In this document: piece by piece, positions 1 to 25,806 of the stretch
Position numbering within the stretch: position 1 is the first letter of the stretch
Layout of the letters: the number at the start of each line of letters is the position of its first letter
Source: a virus
Direction: 5' to 3' (one strand)
DNA length: 26,374 nt
Virus record (IMG/VR): IMGVR_UViG_3300037540_000189
Coordinates: 1 to 26,374 of that record
Made by a program: the position numbers and the translations under genes
The notes under the pieces: model-generated
The model's input: only the letters and a program-made list of their open reading frames with translations
Database searches by the model: none
What the model was told of the DNA's origin: nothing

Positions 1-1480
1 AATAAGCCTCCAGATTCATAGCCACTTTGATAGCATTCGGATCAAAGATATTGGTGCGACTACCACTCAGAGTATCAACCTGCATATCGGAAAGGATGAT
101 AACAGTATCCGGCTCAAACCCCAAATCCTTCTTCATATCCAAAGCAGACTGCAGGTTAGTTCCATATCCCCAATTATCAGCAATAAAGTTCTTGGAAATA
201 TCCATCACCGGAAGATGCGGGTTGATAGCAACATGCTTTGCATAGTCACTGAACAACGTAACCTTCAGATTGGTAGCATCTCTGTTACCCTTAGCAAGAG
301 CGGCGGCAAAGATAGATGCAGTCTCAAACGGAGCCGTACTCACCCAACAGTATCGCGAGGAAAATTGCGATCTTGCGGCAAACTTACCATAATAGCCCAT
401 CATAGAACCAGATGCATCCACGATGATCCAAACATTCTCACCAATAACTGGCACATTGCTCACACTGTAATCAAGAGCCGTAGAGAGTGCCTGATGCAAC
501 TTGTTATCACCACATTCCTGAGTTGCCTTAATAGCATTAACAAAACGAAACGGAAGCTGCTTAGACTTGGCAACCAACTCTGGGTCGGATAGCACATCAT
601 AAACACGCTTCTTCATTACCTTGGCATCAACACCAGCCTCGCTGATATTTCTGGCGTTGCGCATCAAAGCCATAAATCCAATCTTACCGGACTCCAGCAA
701 CTCAGTCCAAAGATCCTTCTTGCTCTTACGCTCTTCCTCTGGAAGCTGTCCATTCTTGGAAAGCTCAACCTCCCAAGTGTAAGGAACGGCAAGCGTCTCC
801 TTCATGATCTTCTCAAAGATAGAACCCTGCTTCTCATCCTTTGCCTTCGGGTGAACGATGCGAAGGACATCAGTCATCTTCACAGCACCATTACGGTTGT
901 ACTTACCAAACTGGTACTCATTAAACTTATTAAAAGCATCAGCAACACCACGCTTGATTGCCATCGGAATCTTACCTTTGGAACCAAACACCTCAAGTGC
1001 ATATGCATACAAATCAGTGATCTGGTCAGCCCTCTGAATAACATCAGCAGTCACGCGACGAAGCGGCAAATACTGAATATTAAGAGTACGAAGTACCTCA
1101 GCAAAATGAACCAGCATAACCAATGGCATGGTACGGATATTCATCTTGGTACGGGCATGAATGATAAGATTGGCAATGAAATGCACATCATCATCGGTTC
1201 CATTAGTAAGCACATCAGCAATACCATCCCTCATGCGGGTGATGCGAGTATCGTTATCCTCATGATAGGAGTCCTTGCCATACATAGACATGGTGGCAAT
1301 CTCATAGAGAGCTTGCTTGTGGTTCTTCTTATACTGCGGATTGCCCTTTGCAGACATTGCGTTGAATGGGCGATCAGTTTGCTCTTGAACAAACCTTCCT
1401 GCTCCAGGCTGGGTCACATCCCACTCCTCGATTCCCTCATCAACGATCTTGCGGACATTCTTCTGATTGATCTTGCTCAT
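1..1480 (-). CDS. Ro60/TROVE RNA-binding protein with vWA domain (C-terminus beyond window)
   Basis: Open from ATG at 1480 to the window edge, about 493 codons without a stop. GAGGAG lies 8 nt before the ATG. Residues about 25-320 read as the helical TROVE ring (for example HFIANLIIHARTKMNIRTMP and RFVNAIKATQ). The last third is a vWA domain with a full MIDAS: DASGSM, then GTNLQSAL, then SDMQVD. Ro60 proteins bind misfolded RNAs in the ring and Y RNAs on the outside; in Deinococcus, Rsr uses a Y RNA to tether PNPase. Two Y-like RNAs lie just upstream on the same strand and four more at 9-13 kb. Assignment is firm; the substrate in this phage is unknown. Confidence 0.93.
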   Translation of the reverse strand, partial: MSKINQKNVRKIVDEGIEEWDVTQPGAGRFVQEQTDRPFNAMSAKGNPQYKKNHKQALYEIATMSMYGKDSYHEDNDTRITRMRDGIADVLTNGTDDDVHFIANLIIHARTKMNIRTMPLVMLVHFAEVLRTLNIQYLPLRRVTADVIQRADQITDLYAYALEVFGSKGKIPMAIKRGVADAFNKFNEYQFGKYNRNGAVKMTDVLRIVHPKAKDEKQGSIFEKIMKETLAVPYTWEVELSKNGQLPEEERKSKKDLWTELLESGKIGFMALMRNARNISEAGVDAKVMKKRVYDVLSDPELVAKSKQLPFRFVNAIKATQECGDNKLHQALSTALDYSVSNVPVIGENVWIIVDASGSMMGYYGKFAARSQFSSRYCWVSTAPFETASIFAAALAKGNRDATNLKVTLFSDYAKHVAINPHLPVMDISKNFIADNWGYGTNLQSALDMKKDLGFEPDTVIILSDMQVDTLSGSRTNIFDPNAIKVAMNLEAY

Positions 1481-1752: not shown

Positions 1753-1774
1753 TTCTATCCCTCAAAAAATAAGT

Positions 1775-1912
1775 GGCTTTGAGTCAAAAACGATTAGAGT
1801 CTTTGAAACGATTACCGAAATAATCGCAAATAACCCGAAGGTTATCTATCACTGATTATTAGTCAGTTAGTTGCTTTAGTATTGAAGTATCTCTTATCTA
1901 CGCAACAAAGCC
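1775..1912 (-). ncRNA. Y-like RNA 1 (three internal hairpins)
   Basis: Read on the minus strand. The outer stem GGCTTTG/CAAAGCC is perfect. Next come the shared 5' arm GTTGCGTAGATAAGAG...CTTC and 3' arm CTCTAATCGTTTTTGACTC; GAT/ATC and AGAG/CTCT pair around one A.A mismatch. Between the arms are three hairpins: ACTGA(CTAATAA)TCAGT, ATAACC(TTCG)GGTTAT and CGATTA(TTTCGG)TAATCG. They match the T-arm, acceptor-like and D-arm positions of YrlA RNAs, although the loops are not tRNA consensus. A T-rich tract (1765-1774) follows the 3' end. It lies 14 nt downstream of Y2 and upstream of the Ro60 gene. Confidence 0.82.
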
Positions 1913-1926
1913 ATTTTTAAAATCAA

Positions 1927-1998
1927 AATTCGAGTTAAAAGCGGTTAAGGTATTTTGTTTCATTAATGGTGAAGTAACCATAACCTACGCAACGAATT
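1927..1998 (-). ncRNA. Y-like RNA 2 (minimal, no tRNA module)
   Basis: 72 nt on the minus strand. Outer stem AATTCG/CGAATT, shared 5' arm GTTGCGTAGGTTATGGTTAC, 3' arm ACCTTAACCGCTTTTAACTC. The helix GGTTA-T-GGT/ACC-T-TAACC has one T.T mismatch. The remaining loop is about 25 nt and has no tRNA-like arms. A T-rich stretch follows. A TATACT -10 box lies 15 nt upstream of the stem, so this is the first RNA of the Ro60 transcript. I read it as a Ro-binding stem without the effector module. Confidence 0.8.
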
Positions 1999-2376: not shown

Positions 2377-2674
2377 CTTCCTTTAATTTGCTTGCCCTAA
2401 ACACCGGATCATAATCCATAGACATGCAAAAACTCCCTAATAATTCATCTTCCATTGAATAAATCTCAAACGTCACGGGCCAACTCCATTCCCATCCATC
2501 ATTATTACTGAATGCATAATCTGCAGCATCTTCAGCAATCCATTCCAAATTATATTCATCCTTATCCCAATCGGAACTTACATTCCATCTTGACTCAAAT
2601 TCTATTCCATCAAATTCTATATCTTCTTCTCCATGATCAGGAATCATATACTTGTATTTAAATGGTTTCTGCAC
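2360..2674 (-). CDS. Hypothetical acidic protein, paralogue of the following gene
   Basis: 104 aa, strongly acidic and aromatic-rich, no known family. It shares the KYKY start, a central helix and the EDELLGSFC strand pair with its downstream neighbour (2104-2376). It overlaps the release-factor-like gene upstream by 17 nt and its paralogue downstream by 17 nt, so the three genes form a tightly coupled set. Function unknown. Confidence 0.65.
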   Translation of the reverse strand: MQKPFKYKYMIPDHGEEDIEFDGIEFESRWNVSSDWDKDEYNLEWIAEDAADYAFSNNDGWEWSWPVTFEIYSMEDELLGSFCMSMDYDPVFRASKLKEDEKCY

Positions 2675-3083
2675 TTTTTACCTCATGTCTTGCTTCAATC
2701 ATTGAGCCTATGTCTCCATCTATTACAACAGATTTGTATGGCATTTTCAACCCACTGGCTTTATCATGCACTTCATTTCTAACTGCATGATAGTTTCTAA
2801 TAGTTTCTCCTCCTCCAAACTTAGCGTCTCGATGAGGATTATCTTCAATTTCCCCTTCTCCATAGACATCATAAAAAGCGAAAAGACGAGATGCAAGCTG
2901 ATTAAATGCTTCACGTTGATTATCCACTCTAGATCGACTATTTTGACCAGAAGCCGTTAGTCCAGATTCAATATGAGTGATTCGGCAACAGTTCTGGTGT
3001 TTGTTGCGATGTTGGCCTCCCGCACCTTGACCGGAAAACCATTCTAATTTGAAATCTTTCTTAGTCAGATGCAGCTCTTTCAT
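2658..3083 (-). CDS. GGQ-domain peptidyl-tRNA hydrolase / release factor-like protein
   Basis: 141 aa. The class I release factor catalytic domain is clear: SGQGAGGQHRNK at residues about 17-28, followed by RITHIESGL, the strand seen in RF1/RF2, ArfB and PrfH. GGQ enters the ribosomal peptidyl-transferase centre and hydrolyses peptidyl-tRNA. No codon-recognition domain is present, so it is closer to the short ArfB/PrfH rescue type than to RF1. Unlike ArfB it lacks an obvious long basic tail. It could free ribosomes stalled on degraded host mRNA; that role is inferred. It overlaps the next gene by 17 nt. Confidence 0.82.
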   Translation of the reverse strand: MKELHLTKKDFKLEWFSGQGAGGQHRNKHQNCCRITHIESGLTASGQNSRSRVDNQREAFNQLASRLFAFYDVYGEGEIEDNPHRDAKFGGGETIRNYHAVRNEVHDKASGLKMPYKSVVIDGDIGSMIEARHEVKSAETI

Positions 3084-9205: not shown

Positions 9206-9321
9206 GTGCGAGTCAAAGGCGGATAGAGGTGAAACTGTCACCAATGTGACTTAACTATCATCCCCATGCGGGGACGATTGGAGTTGAACCAATTTGAAGT
9301 ATCTCTTTCCTACGCAACGCA
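9206..9321 (-). ncRNA. Y-like RNA 3 with permuted tRNA-like module
   Basis: Minus strand. Outer stem GTGCG/CGCAC, 5' arm GTTGCGTAGGAAAGAG, 3' arm CTCTATCCGCCTTTGACTC; GGA/TCC and AGAG/CTCT pair around an A.A mismatch. The interior holds a perfect T arm ATTGG(TTCAACT)CCAAT (9277-9293), a closed acceptor-like hairpin TCCCC-GCAT-GGGGA (9261-9274), and a D-position hairpin GTCAC-ATTG-GTGAC (9237-9250). This is the order known for YrlA, a circularly permuted tRNA. The 3' end runs into TTTTTT (9198-9204). It starts 7 nt after the tRNA-Gly CCA, so the two are probably co-transcribed. Confidence 0.9.
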
Positions 9322-9328
9322 CACAATT

Positions 9329-10431: not shown

Positions 10432-11079
10432 TTAATCTTCCCTTAACATTTCTTCAGGCATTTCATTCCACGGCTTTTTAGATAAAGAACTCCATCCACC
10501 TTTGCTGGAAACTGAATTTGGAGGATATGCAAACTCTTTCATAATAAAAGGACGATTGCCCATCTTTGTCATAAACTCACCAGACTTTCCAAAGACAGGA
10601 TTCTTATAATGCTTGACTACACCTATCTTACCAAATCCAGGATATCCTTCTGGACATTTATTGGTGCTAATCATTTCTCCTGATTTCCCTCCTTTAGGAA
10701 GGAATAGGATACTATCTTGCTCAAATTCAACACCCCATTGAGCCATATCTTTCCTTAATGTTCCCTTATCACGAACATCAATAATAAGAAAAGATCTTTC
10801 TTTATCTGGAGTCTTTTGCCCAGGTGTTCCAAAGTTTTCAATGAACTGACCACTAACAGTAGTCAATCCATAACCCCTCGCCATAATTTTTGATCGAAGA
10901 GAAAGATTCCTCTGCATTTTATCACGCATGGAATATGTTTCATCTTCATCCGACTGACATCCTTCTTTTCCTCTGAAAGCAGTCATTAACCCACCATCAT
11001 GCTCTTGAAGCATACGATAAGTTCTTGATAAAGAAGCTTCATTAATTTGTTTAATCTGTTTAATCTCGTCAAGTTTCAT
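10432..11079 (-). CDS. Hypothetical protein, possibly DUF3293-like
   Basis: 215 aa, with AGGAGGA before the ATG. The segment GGLMTAFRG...NLSLRSKIMARGYGLTTVSG, then ERSFLIIDV and FEQDSILFLPKGG, recalls DUF3293 proteins (a start such as 'ITAFNP', an EpSFlV strand and a gQeSvlf strand). I could not verify this by alignment. The rest is basic and glycine-rich with no motif. Soluble by eye; function unknown. Confidence 0.55.
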   Translation of the reverse strand: MKLDEIKQIKQINEASLSRTYRMLQEHDGGLMTAFRGKEGCQSDEDETYSMRDKMQRNLSLRSKIMARGYGLTTVSGQFIENFGTPGQKTPDKERSFLIIDVRDKGTLRKDMAQWGVEFEQDSILFLPKGGKSGEMISTNKCPEGYPGFGKIGVVKHYKNPVFGKSGEFMTKMGNRPFIMKEFAYPPNSVSSKGGWSSLSKKPWNEMPEEMLRED

Positions 11080-11114
11080 AGAAGAATCCTCCTCCTCTAT
11101 TTATTGAATAAGAA

Positions 11115-11263
11115 GCAAAGAGTTAAAGTCGATAAGGCTCTGTTATACCAAATGCTCTACCATTGAGCTACCCCCCGAACGGCTTTAACACCGTCGAGGA
11201 GGTGAGATTCGAACTCACAACTTTCAGGTTTCAATGAAGAAATCCTAATCTACGCAACTTTGC
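11115..11263 (-). ncRNA. Y-like RNA 4 with clear circularly permuted tRNA module
   Basis: Minus strand. Outer stem GCAAAG/CTTTGC, 5' arm GTTGCGTAGATTAGG, 3' arm CCTTATCGACTTTAACTC (GAT/ATC and AGG/CCT around a T.T mismatch). Interior, 5' to 3': T arm GTGAG(TTCGAAT)CTCAC (11202-11218), an 11-pair acceptor-like stem (11171-11201) closed by an 8-nt loop, and a canonical D arm GCTC(AATGGTA)GAGC (11154-11168). Read from the middle of the stem, GGGGGGTAGCTCAATGGTAGAGC looks exactly like the start of a normal tRNA. The anticodon arm is replaced by the Ro-type stem. T-rich 3' flank. Confidence 0.93.
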
Positions 11264-11275
11264 ATTTTTAAATCT

Positions 11276-11491
11276 TTATTGGAATTTGACAGGACACCAA
11301 TCGGGTGTTTTCCAAATAATCCCATCATCAAACCATCGAATGTGCTTACTATCATATCCCCATGTTGAATACATAGATGGATGTACGCAACTAACATCAC
11401 ATCCAACAGTTATCCGCTCAGAAAGACAATGAACACATTTTGCACAACTTTCAATAGTTATTTCAACTGGACCTTCAAATGGAATTTCCAT
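11276..11491 (-). CDS. Small cysteine-rich protein
   Basis: 71 aa, with AGGAGG before the ATG. Six cysteines occur as CAKCVHC, GCDVSC and a late WCPVKF, which could bind zinc or an iron-sulfur cluster; the CxxCxxC spacing is the most suggestive. No family recognised. It sits between Y RNAs 4 and 5 and may be translated from their precursor. Confidence 0.6.
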   Translation of the reverse strand: MEIPFEGPVEITIESCAKCVHCLSERITVGCDVSCVHPSMYSTWGYDSKHIRWFDDGIIWKTPDWCPVKFQ

Positions 11492-11514
11492 TTAATCCTC
11501 CTATAAAATAAAAA

Positions 11515-11615
11515 GCCGAGTTAAAGACGGTTAGAGAGAACGGGTTCGACCCCGCCAATTTGGCACGAGGCCAAACTCATATCCAATGTGAAGTATCTCT
11601 ATCCTACGCAACGGC
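11515..11615 (-). ncRNA. Y-like RNA 5 (two internal hairpins)
   Basis: Minus strand. Outer stem GCCG/CGGC, 5' arm GTTGCGTAGGATAGAGA, 3' arm TCTCTAACCGTCTTTAACTC with one A.A mismatch. Interior hairpins are TTTGGC-CTCGT-GCCAAA and CGGG-GTCGAA-CCCG. The second has a T-loop-like TCGAA core but not a standard T arm, so the tRNA module looks reduced. TTTTTATTTT follows the outer stem at once (11506-11514), a good intrinsic 3' end. It begins 9 nt after the tRNA-Cys CCA. Confidence 0.85.
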
Positions 11616-11624
11616 ATTTAAAAT

Positions 11625-11699
11625 TGGAGCACCAGGAGGGAATTTGACCCCCGTAATACAGATTTGCAATCTGTCGCCTAAACATTCAGCCACTGGTGC
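11625..11699 (-). tRNA. tRNA-Cys(GCA)
   Basis: Acceptor GCACCAG/CTGGTGC, anticodon arm ACAGA(TTGCAAA)TCTGT, U73 as in bacterial tRNA-Cys, encoded CCA. The T arm GGGGG(TCAAATT)CCCTC lacks the usual TTC start of the loop, a mild irregularity. Y RNA 5 follows directly. Confidence 0.88.
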
Positions 11700-11701
11700 A
11701 T

Positions 11702-11914
11702 TTAAATCTCTTGACTCTTTGATACTAAATTTAAAGTATGAGCAATAATCTTAGCGTTGTTCATAAGTCTGATACATTCTTTTACCCCTTTAGAATATCC
11801 ATCCATATACTCATATGCCGAATGTGTATATGTTGCAAGATTACCATTCAATCCATCGTCGTAACCCGATTGCATCGCTTGCCGCCTTAGCTCAGATGTT
11901 TTATTTTGTATCAT
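11702..11914 (-). CDS. Hypothetical protein
   Basis: 70 aa from ATG 11914, chosen because TAGGAAAAAG lies before it; the longer frame would run through the tRNA-Gln. The sequence SGYDDGLNGN...AYEYMDGYSKGVKECI resembles small phage proteins with a D/N-G repeat helix pair. Not otherwise recognised. It is enclosed by tRNA-Gln upstream and tRNA-Cys 3 nt downstream. Confidence 0.55.
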   Translation of the reverse strand: MIQNKTSELRRQAMQSGYDDGLNGNLATYTHSAYEYMDGYSKGVKECIRLMNNAKIIAHTLNLVSKSQEI

Positions 11915-11931
11915 TCTTTTTCCTATGTGTT

Positions 11932-12007
11932 TGGCAGCCGACCAAAGATTTGAACTTTGAATCTTCGCAGTCAGAGTGCGATGCTTTGCCAATTAAGCTA
12001 GTCGGCT
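11932..12007 (-). tRNA. tRNA-Gln(CTG)
   Basis: Acceptor AGCCGAC/GTCGGCT, D arm GCTT(AATTGGCA)AAGC, anticodon arm TCGCA(CTCTGAC)TGCGA, T arm CAAAG(TTCAAAT)CTTTG, G73 (normal for Gln), encoded CCA. Its 5' end overlaps the stop codon region of the HNH endonuclease gene by 10 nt. Confidence 0.94.
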
Positions 12008-12432
12008 AAATTTTGTTTCTCTTCCCAATGTAATTTTCTGTGACAATTAGCACACAAAACAATACATTTTTCAATCTCTTTTTTCAACTTTTTTATAGTA
12101 GAAGCTTTTTGTCTCCATCTAGAAATTTCAAATTCTTTTTCATCTGTATCTAAATGATGAAAATCTAAAGTAGATGGATGATTTTCACCACATTTTTCAC
12201 AACAAATATTTTCTTTATATTCTTTAAGAAAAGAAAGAACTTTCTCCTTCCATTTTCTATTTTTATTAATATAATAAGATTTATTTTCTTTATAATGATT
12301 TCTAGTATATGACTTCATGCAATTTCTACACGTAGCACTATGCCCATCATTCTTAGCTTTGTTTTTATTAAACTCACTAAGATTTTTCTCTGTATTACAT
12401 TTCCCACATTTTTTTAAAGTTATGTTTTCCAT
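11998..12432 (-). CDS. HNH homing-type endonuclease
   Basis: 144 aa. An N-terminal zinc knuckle pair (KCGKCNTEKNLSEF, then CRNCMKSY) is followed by a basic helical region and the HNH core: CEKCGENHPSTLDFHHLD, then EIEKCIVLCANCHRKLHW. HNH nucleases of this type nick DNA and spread as free-standing homing genes in T-even-like phages. It is inserted between two tRNA-Gln genes and its end overlaps tRNA-Gln(CTG). A TATAAATA late-type box sits 6 nt upstream of the ATG, leaving almost no leader. Confidence 0.9.
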   Translation of the reverse strand: MENITLKKCGKCNTEKNLSEFNKNKAKNDGHSATCRNCMKSYTRNHYKENKSYYINKNRKWKEKVLSFLKEYKENICCEKCGENHPSTLDFHHLDTDEKEFEISRWRQKASTIKKLKKEIEKCIVLCANCHRKLHWEEKQNLAD

Positions 12433-12437
12433 AACCT

Positions 12438-12445
12438 TATTTATA
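12438..12445 (-). promoter_or_regulatory. T4-late-like box TATAAATA upstream of HNH gene
   Basis: Minus strand TATAAATA followed by AGG, 6-13 nt before the HNH ATG. The short distance suggests either a nearly leaderless transcript or that the box does not serve this start. Confidence 0.4.
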
Positions 12446-12481
12446 CCTTTGAAAATGAATGATATTCAAAGTCAAATAATT

Positions 12482-12557
12482 TGGAAGGGAGGTCGAGATT
12501 CGAACTCGAAAATACCAGGATCAAAACCTGGGGCCTTAACCGTTTGGCTACCTCCCT
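12482..12557 (-). tRNA. tRNA-Gln(TTG)
   Basis: Acceptor AGGGAGG/CCTCCCT, anticodon arm CCAGG(TTTTGAT)CCTGG with the same loop as E. coli tRNA-Gln, T arm TCGAG(TTCGAAT)CTCGA, encoded CCA. Position 73 is U where Gln normally has G. It lies 7 nt downstream of Y RNA 6. Confidence 0.92.
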
Positions 12558-12564
12558 AAAACAT

Positions 12565-12634
12565 CCTGAGTTAAAGACGATAAGAGTGCTTTTGTTTACC
12601 AATTAAATGAAGTAACTCTAATCTACGCAACAGG
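12565..12634 (-). ncRNA. Y-like RNA 6 (minimal, no tRNA module)
   Basis: 70 nt, minus strand. Outer stem CCTG/CAGG, 5' arm GTTGCGTAGATTAGAGTTAC, 3' arm ACTCTTATCGTCTTTAACTC; GAT/ATC and AGAGT/ACTCT pair around a T.T mismatch. The loop of about 27 nt has no tRNA arms. Same design as Y RNA 2. Promoters lie immediately upstream and tRNA-Gln 7 nt downstream. Confidence 0.8.
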
Positions 12635-12642
12635 AATATCTC

Positions 12643-12650
12643 TATTTATA
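12643..12650 (-). promoter_or_regulatory. T4-late-like box TATAAATA upstream of Y RNA 6
   Basis: Minus strand TATAAATA 9 nt before the Y6 outer stem, nested just downstream of a sigma70 promoter. This suggests both early and late transcription of Y6 and tRNA-Gln. Confidence 0.45.
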
Positions 12651-12655
12651 TATCT

Positions 12656-12684
12656 ATTGTAACATGGGTGCGGCAAAAAGTCAA
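12656..12684 (-). promoter_or_regulatory. Sigma70 promoter for Y6, tRNA-Gln and HNH
   Basis: Minus strand TTGACT (12679-12684), 17-nt spacer, TACAAT (12656-12661). It overlaps the stop codon of purA. Confidence 0.8.
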
Positions 12685-13931
12685 CCCCATATCTGCTTTA
12701 ATTTGCGAACCGCATAAGCTCGCAACACATTATTATGATGATCCCCCACACTCAAATACTTTCCAGTCTCAAGAATTTCATTCAATAAATAATCGCGATT
12801 GGTCATATAAGCTTTTCCTTTATACGCTATATGAACAAATGCATTATCTATAGCATCAACATGAGTAAATGCCCTGGAAATCATACCCTTCCAATTGTTA
12901 TCACGCACATCATCATCAATTCTATCATAAAATTCAGAAAGATCCAACGGAGCAATCCTCAATGAACCTTGATAATCACCATGCTTATTCGTCTCATCCA
13001 TAACTTGAATACCAAGTTCCTTTGGATCGTATATCCCATTTATCAAAGGACCAGCACCATGCCGCGTCATATAAACACGACTCACATAAACCACTTCCGG
13101 ATCTTCATCAGGCTCCTTACCTATATCAGACATCAATTCCATTACATTGTTCAATCCAGTCTTGGAACGAGTAACATGCGGAAAATCCTTACCATCTTCA
13201 TCCAATAATAAACCTTGGGCTCCCTCAAAAATCAATGTGTGCTTGTTTTCAACAAGGTCATTGTAATGAAGATTAGCACATTGGAACTTTCTGGTCATTA
13301 AATGTGCACCTAGCATTTCCCTTGCAGAATCGATAAACTTCAGATTAACCTGTTTGTAAAATGGAAGAGAATAATGATTCTCCAATCCTAATTCCTCTAA
13401 ACGCGGAATAAACCATTCTTTTTGAATTTGATTCAATCTCTTATAAAGCTGCGCTTTATCCAACTCATAAAGGTCTTTTACTCTCAATGCCTTTTCATAA
13501 CGCTCACTTTGCTCAATAGTCTCTCCAAACCCAACCCCTACACTACCATGACGCGCACCAGCACGGGAATCCTCAAGAGCCTGATTGATAATCATATCAT
13601 AAGGTGTGGTCACGCGCGCATAAGGATCAACCCATACTCGCATCTTATTCCAATCATAACCTTGCTCAATCAATTCTTTCTTCTCTTTTACGAAAAGAAG
13701 CGGATTGACAACAAAATATTCACTCAAATAAGTAGGAGCACCAGCAAGAGTTCCAGAACCAAAGTGCGAAAAGACATGCCGAATCTTACCATCATTAACA
13801 GTATGCCCCGCTTGCGCACCACCATTGAAACGAATAACCAAAGGATTCTTTTCCTGACGCACAAGATAATCCGTCATCAACCCCTTGCCCTCATCGCCAT
13901 AATTGGCACCAATGACAACTTTGACCTTCAT
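12681..13931 (-). CDS. purA: Adenylosuccinate synthetase (PurA family)
   Basis: 416 aa, near the usual 430. Converts IMP, Asp and GTP to adenylosuccinate. Motifs: GANYGDEGKG with the general-base Asp13, GGAQAGHTVN with His43, GSVGVGFGETIEQ, LIFEGAQGLLLDED, and TRHGAGPLI. The region where E. coli has the TGR..RTGW substrate loop reads GDYQGSLRIAPLDLSEF here, so the C-terminal part is divergent. Asp13 is kept, whereas phage PurZ enzymes, which make aminoadenylosuccinate for Z-DNA, replace it; that favours PurA chemistry, but the divergent loop leaves a PurZ-related origin open. The SD lies inside a hairpin. purM is 5 kb upstream. Confidence 0.92.
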   Translation of the reverse strand: MKVKVVIGANYGDEGKGLMTDYLVRQEKNPLVIRFNGGAQAGHTVNDGKIRHVFSHFGSGTLAGAPTYLSEYFVVNPLLFVKEKKELIEQGYDWNKMRVWVDPYARVTTPYDMIINQALEDSRAGARHGSVGVGFGETIEQSERYEKALRVKDLYELDKAQLYKRLNQIQKEWFIPRLEELGLENHYSLPFYKQVNLKFIDSAREMLGAHLMTRKFQCANLHYNDLVENKHTLIFEGAQGLLLDEDGKDFPHVTRSKTGLNNVMELMSDIGKEPDEDPEVVYVSRVYMTRHGAGPLINGIYDPKELGIQVMDETNKHGDYQGSLRIAPLDLSEFYDRIDDDVRDNNWKGMISRAFTHVDAIDNAFVHIAYKGKAYMTNRDYLLNEILETGKYLSVGDHHNNVLRAYAVRKLKQIWG

Positions 13932-13977: not shown

Positions 13978-14916
13978 TTAGAGACGAACAGCCTTCATGG
14001 CATCATTGAATGCATCGCCACTGGAAGTAATGTCCTTGATAGCAGAACGAACCGTCATCTCTGTTGAACCATCCCAAGAAGAAGCAACCTCTTCCTTATC
14101 AGCGCCCTCATTGACCTCAATCAGAGAAACGATAACTTCGGATAGATCATTAATATCTTTCAGTTCAACCAAACGCTGCCCCATTCCTGCTTCATTCCAA
14201 GTACTGCGAACATCATCAATTCCACCACAATACCCATGACGAATATAACTACCTTCCATCACAATAATATGGAAACAATGATACATCTTCATTGCCTGAT
14301 CTACAACCTGACTAAAGGGAATGTCAGTCTCAAGTCCAGTATCACCCAAAACCTTCTCAGCAAGTGAACGAGTAAGAACAGCAGGTGCAGGCTCATCACC
14401 CATCGTGAAAAGATAACCCTTCCGGTTGCGCTTCTCAAAACAATCAATGCTCGTCTGATTAGCAGCAAAGTAATAGGGTAAGTCATAAGACTCAAAGTTA
14501 TTACCACCACCAGCACCCTCTAAGTAAATCTTGGTCAGCCAATCAGCAATCTTGATGTCAGCCTCAAACTGAGATGCCTGGAAGGGAACCCGATCACAAG
14601 TGTAATCACCGTTTGCGGTAATCATCAAATGAGGATCAGAAACCGGCTTACGATCAAGAATCTCATCAAACAACTTACCAACACCCTTGCGAACCAATTG
14701 CTCAGCAAGCATTCCCATTGAACCAGTAACATCAACATTGACGATAATAGCAGTTGCTTCTGGATTCTTATCAGAGTCACGAGACTCACGAATCACATTC
14801 TTCGGGTCAAGATCATTATCAAGCCCCCGACTGGTGAAAATCTCTTCACGCTTCTTCGTTGAAGTTGTATCAACATGTGCCGTCCAATCACTTGGCTTAT
14901 ATCTTGAATATCCCAT
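13978..14916 (-). CDS. vWA domain protein, partner of the J-domain protein
   Basis: 312 aa from ATG 14916, preceded by AGGAGATAAA; the longer frame has no RBS. The vWA core begins at about residue 55: IVNVDVTGSMG (MIDAS DxTGS), then GAGGGNNFESYDL as the second loop and LFTMGDEPAP as the third. A cysteine pair (MYHCFHII, HGYCGG) lies later. vWA proteins of this type commonly act as adaptors with chaperones or AAA ATPases. It directly follows the J-domain gene (5 nt), which supports a functional pair. Function otherwise unknown. Confidence 0.82.
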   Translation of the reverse strand: MGYSRYKPSDWTAHVDTTSTKKREEIFTSRGLDNDLDPKNVIRESRDSDKNPEATAIIVNVDVTGSMGMLAEQLVRKGVGKLFDEILDRKPVSDPHLMITANGDYTCDRVPFQASQFEADIKIADWLTKIYLEGAGGGNNFESYDLPYYFAANQTSIDCFEKRNRKGYLFTMGDEPAPAVLTRSLAEKVLGDTGLETDIPFSQVVDQAMKMYHCFHIIVMEGSYIRHGYCGGIDDVRSTWNEAGMGQRLVELKDINDLSEVIVSLIEVNEGADKEEVASSWDGSTEMTVRSAIKDITSSGDAFNDAMKAVRL

Positions 14917-14920
14917 ATTT

Positions 14921-16000
14921 TTATCTCCTGTAAATTTTGTTAGAGTTAATTTCCATCTTGATAAACTTACGCTTACCAAAACACTTCTCTAGGACTTTAA
15001 ACCAATCGTTATAACGATCAACCGCTGTCCTTCCACCAACATTCGCACGAAGCCAACTAATTAACGCTTTCGGAATGTCTCGGTTCATTAACAACGCAGA
15101 TCCTAACATCGACTTATCACCTAGAGACTCAATCAAAGTGGATTTGATCTGACTTCCATCATAACACGCATGAGCAATTTTATCAACAAATAAATTTAAT
15201 GCTACTTTTTGATGAATATCAACAAATATCTCCTTCGGCATAACCCTTGCCATCTTTGAAGGTAGTGCTTTTACCTTCTCTCCTGCCTTCTGAGAATACC
15301 ACCAACCCCCATAAAGATAAACACTATGGTCAGTGGGTCTTATGAAAATTGCATCAGCAGTGAGCCCATTATGATTCATTCTTGAAACATCCATCATCGC
15401 CGCTAGGTTAAACAACCCACTACCAATCCAAGCAACATGCTTCGGATGAACCTTCCCATCAAAATACTCGTTAATGTCTGCCAAACTATAAACATCTTCT
15501 GGCTTACTCATCATCATAACACTATGCGTAGATGTCTTTCCAGTAAAAATAATATTAGGAAGAAACTGCTTAAACTCTTTCTCTAATGTGATGTTTTTGA
15601 AAGGGAACCCTTCAATATTACGCTTCGCATTCTTATAAAGATCTTCAAACTCTTCCTCTACCATAAAGAGCACTTTCTTCTTCCCTATATACATCTTACC
15701 AACATCAATCTTGCGAACTGATTCATAATGAAAAACATAAAGCTTTCCATCAGGTAAAATAGTAAATTCAACTTCTGCATTATTCCCATTCCACATTCCA
15801 GATTCAAAAAGCTTCTCGGCTTTATCATATAGAACATTGATATGATGGAAAACATCAGCAGATTCAGGAAGAGAACATTTGTCAGGATGCCATCGCTTAC
15901 GCAGCTTCATATATTGCACTTTGATATTGTTTTTATCAAAAAGCTTTTCTGGTGTCTCAATCGCCAGAATTTTATCCGCACTCAATTTCTCGGGATTCAT
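14921..16000 (-). CDS. J-domain protein fused to a degenerate kinase-like domain
   Basis: 359 aa from ATG 16000, with GAGGGGAGTG upstream. Residues about 8-65 form a short J domain: YMKLRKRWHPDK carries the HPD tripeptide that triggers DnaK ATP hydrolysis. A beta-rich region follows (DGKLYVFHYESVRKIDVG...KKKVLFMVEEEF). The region HPKHVAWIGSGLFNLAAMMD, NHNGLTADAIFIRPTDHSVY and LYGGWWYS has the layout of a protein-kinase catalytic loop and DFG segment without the catalytic residues, so I read a pseudokinase. Confident for the J domain, tentative for the second domain. It is paired with the vWA gene. Confidence 0.75.
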   Translation of the reverse strand: MNPEKLSADKILAIETPEKLFDKNNIKVQYMKLRKRWHPDKCSLPESADVFHHINVLYDKAEKLFESGMWNGNNAEVEFTILPDGKLYVFHYESVRKIDVGKMYIGKKKVLFMVEEEFEDLYKNAKRNIEGFPFKNITLEKEFKQFLPNIIFTGKTSTHSVMMMSKPEDVYSLADINEYFDGKVHPKHVAWIGSGLFNLAAMMDVSRMNHNGLTADAIFIRPTDHSVYLYGGWWYSQKAGEKVKALPSKMARVMPKEIFVDIHQKVALNLFVDKIAHACYDGSQIKSTLIESLGDKSMLGSALLMNRDIPKALISWLRANVGGRTAVDRYNDWFKVLEKCFGKRKFIKMEINSNKIYRR

Positions 16001-24538: not shown

Positions 24539-24627
24539 TGGCAGAGGGAGTCGGAATCGAGCCGAAAGCCGTTAGGCTCCTCCTGTTTTCGAAACAAGGG
24601 CACAAAAACCATTGTGCATCACCCTCT
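24539..24627 (-). tRNA. tRNA-Ser(CGA)
   Basis: Acceptor AGAGGG/CCCTCT, D arm GCAC(AATGGTTTTT)GTGC, anticodon arm CTTGT(TTCGAAA)ACAGG, long variable arm with AGCC/GGCT stem, T arm with a CTCGATT loop (C54 instead of T), G73, encoded CCA. A class II tRNA as expected for Ser. Its 5' end abuts the lpxC stop codon. Confidence 0.88.
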
Positions 24628-25464
24628 TTATCTGTTTACCAAGGCATAATTAGATCCATCAGAAAGCAACTTCTTCACCAACTCAATGTTTAATGAATGA
24701 CCTGACTTATATCCATAAAAATCTCCCTCTATCTCATAACCACTAAGATAAAGATCACCTAAAATATCAAGAATTTTATGACGCACAAACTCATCTTCAT
24801 AACGAAGCGGCTCTTCATTCAACATCCCATCTTCAGTCAAAACAATAGCATTCTCTACACTCCCACCTAATGCAAATCCATTTACTTGCATCTCCTCAAC
24901 ATCTTTCTCAAAACCAAATGTACGCGCATAAGAAATCGCATTAACAAAAGAATCTTTACACCTATCAAAAACAAATATCTGATTACCAATTAAAGGATGA
25001 TCATAATTAATATCACACTCTATTCTCAATCCATCAAATGGTCTTATTTCAACTAAACTATCCTCATTATCAATACGAACATTCTTCTTTACCTTCAATA
25101 CTTTACGAGGAACAGACTGAAGAACAACTCCTGCTTCTTCAATCAATTGAACAAATGGCTCAACACTTCCATCCATCACAGGAACCTCTGGCTCATCTAA
25201 ATGAATGAAACAATTATGAATACGCTTGCCATGCAATGCAGCTAACAAATGCTCAACAGTAATAATAGAAGTATTACCATTAGATAATGTCGTTGCTAAT
25301 TTAGTTATTGAAACATTTGAAACTATTGCAGGAATTTGAACTCGATTACAAATGAATATAATTCCTGAATCTTCCGGTGCAGGATAAAGAGCCATCTGAA
25401 TCTCTTTTCCTGTATGCAAACCAATACCCGCCGCTCTAACTACTCTCGCCAAAGTTCGTTGCAT
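24628..25464 (-). CDS. lpxC: UDP-3-O-acyl-N-acetylglucosamine deacetylase
   Basis: 278 aa against about 305 in E. coli. Motifs in order: GIGLHTG, ATTL, VEHLLAAL (zinc His72), EVPVMDGS, then SYARTFGF, GSVENAIVL, NEEPLRYEDEFVRHKILDILGDL (zinc His and Asp) and GHSLNIEL (catalytic His). All zinc and catalytic residues are present, so it should be active. LpxC is the first committed step of lipid A synthesis and is normally controlled by FtsH degradation; the C-terminal degradation tail appears altered here (SDGSNYALVNR). SD AAAGGAGGG. It sits between a structured RNA and tRNA-Ser. Confidence 0.94.
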   Translation of the reverse strand: MQRTLARVVRAAGIGLHTGKEIQMALYPAPEDSGIIFICNRVQIPAIVSNVSITKLATTLSNGNTSIITVEHLLAALHGKRIHNCFIHLDEPEVPVMDGSVEPFVQLIEEAGVVLQSVPRKVLKVKKNVRIDNEDSLVEIRPFDGLRIECDINYDHPLIGNQIFVFDRCKDSFVNAISYARTFGFEKDVEEMQVNGFALGGSVENAIVLTEDGMLNEEPLRYEDEFVRHKILDILGDLYLSGYEIEGDFYGYKSGHSLNIELVKKLLSDGSNYALVNR

Positions 25465-25702: not shown

Positions 25703-25806
25703 AATGGGTGGAGAGATTCGAACTCCCGACATCCTGCTCGGTTTGAAGCCTCGTTAGAAGCTGCAAACCAAAGCAGGCGCACTAGACCCAACTGTGCAAC
25801 ACCCCG
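25703..25806 (-). tRNA. tRNA-like RNA with an extended anticodon arm
   Basis: D arm CAC(AGTTGGGTCTA)GTG, variable ATGTC and T arm GGGAG(TTCGAAT)CTCTC are tRNA-like; the acceptor pairs for only five positions (GGGTG/CACCC). Between anticodon stem halves CCTGC and GCAGG lie 35 nt instead of 7, folding as GGTTTG/CAAACC plus GCTTC-TAAC-GAGGC. Either a 28-nt insertion in the anticodon loop or a non-decoding tRNA mimic. Confidence 0.55.

What the first reader, a model, noticed from the sequence alone, without database searches (positions are those of the whole stretch)
11115..11263. Y RNA 4 contains an almost intact, circularly permuted tRNA
T arm GTGAG(TTCGAAT)CTCAC, then a closed acceptor stem, then D arm GCTC(AATGGTA)GAGC, with the Ro stem where the anticodon arm should be. 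This is the YrlA layout, here with nearly perfect tRNA arms, suggesting recent derivation from a tRNA gene or strong selection for tRNA mimicry.
Basis: partly seen in the sequence, partly recalled or inferred. Interest (0 to 1): 0.85.

Follow-up and report, generated by a model that had tools for sequence, protein, structure and literature searches.

The report
Phage Y RNA mimicking tRNA
This phage carries a Ro60-like protein gene and six small "Y RNA" genes with the same protein-docking stem, and the one reported here ends in a nearly complete tRNA shape with its parts in rotated order, as in a known bacterial RNA family; related phages also carry the same combination with the tRNA parts in normal order.

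Summary
The RNA runs 11263->11115: closing stem, conserved Ro-type internal loop, T arm (5/5 pairs, TTCGAAT), 7-bp closed acceptor, D arm (4/4), then the other half of the Ro stem. With a generic anticodon loop, the de-permuted sequence is called a tRNA by ARAGORN; 0 of 200 shuffles are. It is one of six minus-strand elements with the same Ro stem in the window. Strong covariation supports that stem across 16 copies from three phages. The window also encodes a truncated Ro60/TROVE protein (2-1480). I conclude it is a phage YrlA-type Y RNA: a new variant of a known kind. "Recent derivation" is not supported: no parent tRNA stands out among 114 phage tRNAs, and canonical arms recur in phages whose Ro60s share only 25-54% identity with this one. 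Going beyond the finding, several related Y RNAs keep an encoded CCA inside the closed acceptor, and two phages carry the UN-permuted counterpart: a tRNA with open ends and an inside-out Ro stem in its anticodon loop. This points to an origin by circular permutation within tRNA arrays. Function (tethering Ro60 to tRNA-handling enzymes) is inferred, not shown.

The parts
11115..11263 (-). The Y RNA of the finding: Ro-binding stem plus circularly permuted tRNA-like module
   Evidence: sequence; Rfam YrlA 30.7 bits; ARAGORN on the de-permuted form
11258..11263 (-). P1, 5' strand GCAAAG (pairs with CTTTGC 11115-11120)
   Evidence: covariation of P1 across 16 copies
11251..11257 (-). Ro-site internal loop, 5' side TTGCGTA (invariant or nearly so in 16 copies)
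11243..11250 (-). P2, 5' strand GATTAGGA (6/8 pairs with GCCTTATC 11131-11138)
11235..11242 (-). TTTCTTCA, conserved W-N-CTTC motif after P2
11202..11218 (-). T arm GTGAG-TTCGAAT-CTCAC
11195..11201 (-). Acceptor 3' strand CTCCTCG
11178..11194 (-). Acceptor-closing loop ACGGTGTTAAAGCCGTT, a small CGG/CCG hairpin; no CCA
11171..11177 (-). Acceptor 5' strand CGGGGGG
11154..11168 (-). D arm GCTC-AATGGTA-GAGC, preceded by TA (positions 8-9)
11121..11130 (-). Ro-site internal loop, 3' side GACTTTAACT
2..1480 (-). Ro60/TROVE protein, 493 aa, cut by the window edge; VWA motif DASGSMMG
   Evidence: PF05731 58.4 and 24.6 bits; open-ended ORF; solved TROVE proteins E 4e-18
1927..1998 (-). Minimal Y RNA (Ro stem only), upstream of Ro60
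1774..1913 (-). Y RNA with three hairpins in T/acceptor/D order, no canonical tRNA loops
9206..9322 (-). Y RNA with canonical T arm ATTGG-TTCAACT-CCAAT, closed acceptor CGTCCCC[GCAT]GGGGATG, degenerate D hairpin
11515..11615 (-). Y RNA with two hairpins, not clearly tRNA-like
12564..12635 (-). Minimal Y RNA (Ro stem only)

Best explanation
It is a phage-encoded Y RNA of the YrlA type. The basal stem (P1 - UUGCGUA/GNYUUURACU internal loop - P2) docks on the phage's own Ro60 ring. The effector end is a tRNA body with closed acceptor stem and the T and D arms in circularly permuted order, so that it folds into the tRNA elbow. The phage carries a set of such RNAs with one constant Ro stem and different effector ends: two minimal, one two-hairpin and three in T/acceptor/D order. 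Most likely the tRNA-like end recruits tRNA-handling or RNA-degrading proteins (in bacteria DusA, TruB and PNPase) to Ro60, so that the Ro60-Y complex directs, gates or protects RNA, including tRNA, during infection. Shown here: sequence anatomy, covariation, presence of a Ro60 gene, recurrence in other phages. Inferred: Ro60 binding, the elbow fold, recruitment and role in infection. The confidence given is for the identity as a Ro60-docked tRNA-mimic Y RNA; the recruitment step alone I would put near 0.5.
For: Arms and closed acceptor present exactly. YrlA is the best Rfam match. ARAGORN accepts the de-permuted form, 0/200 shuffles. Six copies share the Ro stem in the window, and 16 aligned copies from three phages give 91.8% paired cells, 61 double-changed cells against 20.9 +/- 3.5 shuffled, and covariation 0.729 against 0.216 with slid controls at most 0.19. 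A Ro60 lies in the window next to two of the Y RNAs. G021, G037 and G039 also hold both. The same T-acceptor-D order occurs in other Ro60 phages. Known YrlA biology: Rsr on the basal stem, tRNA-like end binding PNPase and modified by DusA/TruB (PMC8394870).
Against: Rfam score is below the YrlA gathering score and the model does not match the Ro stem. P2 is weak in this copy and plain folding prefers another pairing. Two phages with the same RNAs (G022, 150 kb; G038, 183 kb) show no Ro60 in their contigs. No RtcB in window or relatives. No expression data.
Confidence: 0.75

Rival explanations
1. tRNA decoy: the RNA mainly acts as a non-cleavable tRNA mimic that occupies host anticodon nucleases or tRNA-binding defence proteins, with Ro60 only stabilising it.
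For: It has a tRNA body without an anticodon to cut; the phage carries many tRNAs. Competitive inhibition of an anticodon nuclease was proposed for YrlA (PMC7790460).
Against: The Ro site is the most conserved part of the family, and minimal copies without any tRNA module exist (1927-1998, 12564-12635), so the family's shared function lies in the Ro stem.
Confidence: 0.2
2. Processed permuted tRNA: the acceptor linker is excised by RNase P and 3' processing, leaving a two-piece RNA with a mature, chargeable acceptor end, as in two-piece tmRNA or permuted tRNA genes.
For: Three related Y RNAs keep discriminator+CCA before the linker (G021:21183; two in G037).
Against: The window copy has no CCA, and its linker forms a hairpin. 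In G022, G024 and G038 the acceptor is closed by GNRA loops (GAAA, GAAA, GCAA), which suggests it stays closed.
Confidence: 0.1
3. Chance junction or remnant of neighbouring tRNA genes rather than one RNA.
For: Tandem tRNAs give weak YrlA hits at their junction (L223:13701-13756), and YrlA matches ring in most control genomes at loose thresholds.
Against: No complete tRNA flanks the element, the two acceptor strands pair 7/7, and the Ro stem encloses it; de-permuted form called as tRNA with 0/200 shuffles.
Confidence: 0.03
4. Recent capture of one of the phage's own tRNA genes.
For: Near-consensus arms; encoded CCA in relatives shows that such capture has happened in this group.
Against: No tRNA in the window or three related phages is closer than unrelated tRNAs are to each other; nothing in 50,697 phages covers 80%. 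The phage genome is incomplete.
Confidence: 0.07

Closest known systems
YrlA (Rfam RF02553; Salmonella and Mycobacterium Y RNA, PDB 6CU1)
   Same: T arm - closed acceptor - D arm order, short helix at the anticodon-stem position, long basal stem for the Ro60 orthologue; size 90-150 nt
   Different: Sub-threshold score; Ro-site sequence (UUGCGUA / GNYUUURACU) is not matched by the model; phage-borne inside a tRNA cluster; no rtcBA found; several paralogues with different effector ends
Deinococcus Y RNA / RYPER (Rsr-Y RNA-PNPase)
   Same: Ro60 orthologue and Y RNA encoded in the same genome
   Different: PNPase tethering not testable here; I did not search for a phage PNPase
Vertebrate Y RNAs
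   Same: Basal stem with bulges or an internal loop for Ro60 (my comparison of the 3' side with the human sequence is from memory, a lead only)
   Different: No tRNA-like module; a review holds that bacterial Y RNAs are not homologous with the vertebrate clades (PMC4726728)
Permuted tRNA genes and two-piece tmRNA (own knowledge)
   Same: 3' half precedes 5' half, sometimes with encoded CCA before the linker (in relatives)
   Different: No anticodon; the halves are joined by a Ro stem; acceptor loop mostly looks permanent

Membership tests
YrlA / bacterial Y RNA | tRNA-like domain with T, acceptor and D arms in permuted order | tested here: met
YrlA / bacterial Y RNA | Basal stem joining 5' and 3' ends with conserved Ro-type internal loop | tested here: met
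   16-copy alignment and covariation; weakest P2 in this copy
YrlA / bacterial Y RNA | Ro60/Rsr gene in the same genome | tested here: met
   TROVE 2-1480
YrlA / bacterial Y RNA | Rfam RF02553 score over the gathering score (69); a curation threshold, not a biological feature | tested here: not met
   30.7 bits, model positions 28-81
YrlA / bacterial Y RNA | Physical binding to Ro60 | not testable with these tools
   needs gel shift or pull-down
YrlA / bacterial Y RNA | D and pseudouridine in D and T loops | not testable with these tools
   shown for YrlA in the literature (PMC8394870)
tRNA | Anticodon arm and open acceptor with CCA | tested here: not met
   no anticodon, closed acceptor
Permuted tRNA gene (mature tRNA product) | Encoded anticodon | tested here: not met
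   anticodon loop is occupied by the Ro stem
Permuted tRNA gene (mature tRNA product) | Linker that is excised from the transcript | not testable with these tools
   needs RNA end mapping

The most novel reading that the evidence does not exclude
Phages build families of Ro60-guided RNAs out of their tRNA arrays: a Ro-binding stem enters the anticodon loop of a tRNA gene, giving first an un-permuted tRNA/Y hybrid with tRNA ends open (seen in G022 and G038), then, by tandem duplication and loss, the circularly permuted YrlA form with the spacer (sometimes CCA plus spacer) as acceptor loop, then erosion to minimal Y RNAs. This would give YrlA's unusual topology a simple origin, and the un-permuted hybrids would be a new kind of Y RNA.
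Probability: 0.45. Interest if true: 0.78.

Novelty: new variant of a known kind. Interest (0 to 1): 0.6.

Why it matters
It shows a virus with its own Ro60 and a set of at least six matching Y RNAs, a compact system for asking what Ro60-Y complexes do in infection. In related phages, permuted and un-permuted forms, encoded CCA ends and eroded copies occur side by side, so the question of where the tRNA-like Y RNAs come from becomes directly testable.

Tried and rejected
Sigma-70 promoter and terminator scan of 11000-12700: nothing useful. RtcB sought and absent. VWA-protein relatives (20 contigs) have no TROVE. Junction-of-two-tRNAs artefact considered and rejected for this element. Chen 2014, Sim 2018 and Sim 2020 are not held, so I could not check what they list for phages. 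Simple folding is a poor guide here: z about -2.5 to -0.7 for the copies, and the un-permuted hybrid is not more stable than its shuffles.

Full report
What is there. The element lies on the minus strand, 11263 to 11115, 149 nt. From the 5' end: P1 GCAAAG; UUGCGUA; P2 GAUUAGGA; UUUCUUCA; a linker; T arm GTGAG-TTCGAAT-CTCAC; acceptor CTCCTCG; loop ACGGTGTTAAAGCCGTT; acceptor CGGGGGG; TA; D arm GCTC-AATGGTA-GAGC; a linker; P2' GCCTTATC; GACTTTAACT; P1' CTTTGC. Read directly from the sequence, the usual tRNA elbow bases are there: T8, A14, R15, G18 G19, A21, and the T loop TTCRANY.

More than chance. Rfam's best call is YrlA, 30.7 bits (gathering score 69), covering only the tRNA-like part. Joining the halves in tRNA order with a generic anticodon loop gives a tRNA call by ARAGORN, 0 of 200 shuffles. 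The exact 5' motif TTGCGTAG occurs six times in the window, always on the minus strand, each followed by the matching 3' half. A descriptor of P1, the two loop sides and P2 finds all six and none in 1.15 Mb of shuffled loci.

A family. Scans of viral contigs found the same Ro stem in G021 (7 copies), G022 (3 plus a hybrid), G037 (4 or more), G038 and G039. In 16 copies from the window, G021 and G022 the stem has 91.8% paired cells and 61 cells changed on both sides, against 20.9 +/- 3.5 in shuffles; covariation is 0.729 against 0.216, and slid versions reach at most 0.19. The alignment joins the two halves without the variable middle, so it tests the Ro stem only. The window encodes a Ro60 (2-1480, cut by the edge), and so do G021, G037 and G039. 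G022 and G038 show none. Of 20 other IMG/VR contigs, chosen by a VWA-protein match, none has TROVE; this is a weak control.

The tRNA-like end. The order T arm, closed acceptor, D arm recurs with canonical arms in G021 (two), G022, phiKT1024, G024, G027 and G030. Together with the window copy and the un-permuted G022 hybrid, 61 of 63 acceptor pairs form, against about 35 when strands are exchanged between RNAs, 0 of 20,000 permutations (one bulged base was removed by hand in each of two rows). G037, G038 and G039 have more, with 7/7 acceptors in the three copies found by script. Ro60 identity to the window ranges from 54% (G021) to 25% (phiKT1024). So the arms are kept by selection over long divergence. 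In the window itself there is a series: 11263-11115 canonical; 9322-9206 with canonical T arm, closed acceptor and degenerate D hairpin; 1913-1774 with three hairpins in the same order but no tRNA loops; 11615-11515 with two hairpins; 1998-1927 and 12635-12564 with none.

Parent. Compared by halves with 114 tRNAs of four phages, the element's best score is 28 of 64; the median best score between ordinary tRNAs is 27 in the window and 25-31 in the others. Blastn against phages gives no match covering 80%. There is no sign of recent derivation; the phage genome is incomplete, so a parent outside the window cannot be excluded.

Where the Ro stem is attached. In relatives a 5-bp anticodon stem is present: GCAGT/ACTGC in G021:21430, GGTAA/TTATC in the G022 hybrid, 4 of 5 in G022:15266 (read from the sequence). 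Rfam's YrlA has a 4-bp helix there. In the window copy the equivalent TTTGG/CTGAA is weak and not favoured by folding. So the Ro stem is best described as an extension of the anticodon loop.

Un-permuted counterparts. In G022 (L223:15954-16086) and G038 (L402:1525-1652, minus) Rfam calls a tRNA (40.8 and 40.4 bits; gathering 29) whose anticodon loop holds the Ro site inside-out: 3' half first, then a closed P1 hairpin (CATCC[TCAT]GGATG; CGC[GTAA]GCG), then the 5' half. Acceptors are 7/7 with different sequences (TGTGAGA/TCTCACA; AGTCAGA/TCTGACT). G022's copy is seen in two contigs (L068 and L081). A rival is that these are remnants of two tandem Y RNAs; the matching acceptor strands, closed P1 and absence of outer halves speak against it. 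Plain folding does not make the G022 hybrid unusually stable (z -0.66), and neither contig shows a Ro60, so what binds these hybrids is open.

Encoded CCA. G021:21183 (CTTCCCA-A-CCA, with a class II variable arm, nearest to tRNA-Leu of the same phage) and two G037 copies (AGTCACC-A-CCA; ACCCCAT-G-CCA) keep a tRNA 3' end before the acceptor loop. This is what a tandem pair of tRNA genes would leave behind. In G022, G024 and G038 the loop is GAAA, GAAA and GCAA, which suggests the acceptor stays closed.

How it works. By analogy with YrlA (PMC8394870): Ro60 holds the basal stem, and the tRNA-like end is recognised by tRNA enzymes and PNPase. A constant Ro stem with different ends suggests interchangeable adaptors for one Ro60. 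The decoy idea (PMC7790460) remains open for the tRNA-like members but does not explain the minimal ones.

Known or new. Phages with TROVE proteins are known (PMC7824862), and YrlA in phages has been mentioned (PMC7765460, citing Sim and Wolin 2018, not held). The window element is a new variant of YrlA. I found no paper on un-permuted tRNA/Y hybrids or encoded-CCA Y RNAs, but key papers are not in the library.

Noticed in passing
L223:15954-16086 (+) and L402:1525-1652 (-): Un-permuted tRNA/Y RNA hybrids: normal tRNA order with an inside-out Ro stem in the anticodon loop; Rfam tRNA 40.8 and 40.4 bits.
   Followed up: partly
L221:1383, L401:1477 (-), L401:1306 (-): Permuted-tRNA Y RNAs that still encode discriminator+CCA inside the closed acceptor stem.
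   Followed up: partly
L221:1700-1829: Rfam tRNA match (30.8 bits) formed by the D half of one Y RNA and the T half of the next in tandem.
   Followed up: partly
window 25706-25804 (-): tRNA-like element (35.4 bits) whose anticodon loop is extended by a GGTTTG/CAAACC hairpin, without the Ro motif.
   Followed up: no
window 11628-11699 (-): tRNA (53.8 bits, anticodon loop TTGCAAA) missed by ARAGORN, just upstream of Y RNA 11615-11515.
   Followed up: no
window 24542-24628 (-): tRNA-Sec-like match, 40.2 bits, below the gathering score of 47.
   Followed up: no
window 2658-3083 (-): 141-aa RF-1 domain (GGQ) protein, nearest to RF2, RF1 and PrfH models, near the Ro60/Y RNA region.
   Followed up: partly
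window 13978-14979 (-) and 12681-13931 (-): VWA-like protein followed by adenylosuccinate synthase, the same order as in Vibrio phage phiKT1024, where a TROVE gene lies a few kb further on.
   Followed up: partly
window 10432-11079 (-): Putative S-adenosylmethionine lyase (PF23780, 30.9 bits), next gene downstream of the Y RNA.
   Followed up: no
window 24628-25464 (-): LpxC (307 bits), a lipid A biosynthesis enzyme, in a phage; suggests a Gram-negative host.
   Followed up: no
L363, L365, L366: Other Ro60 phages carry YrlA-type RNAs with canonical tRNA arms at 28-42 bits, all below Rfam's gathering score; the Rfam model under-calls phage members.
   Followed up: partly
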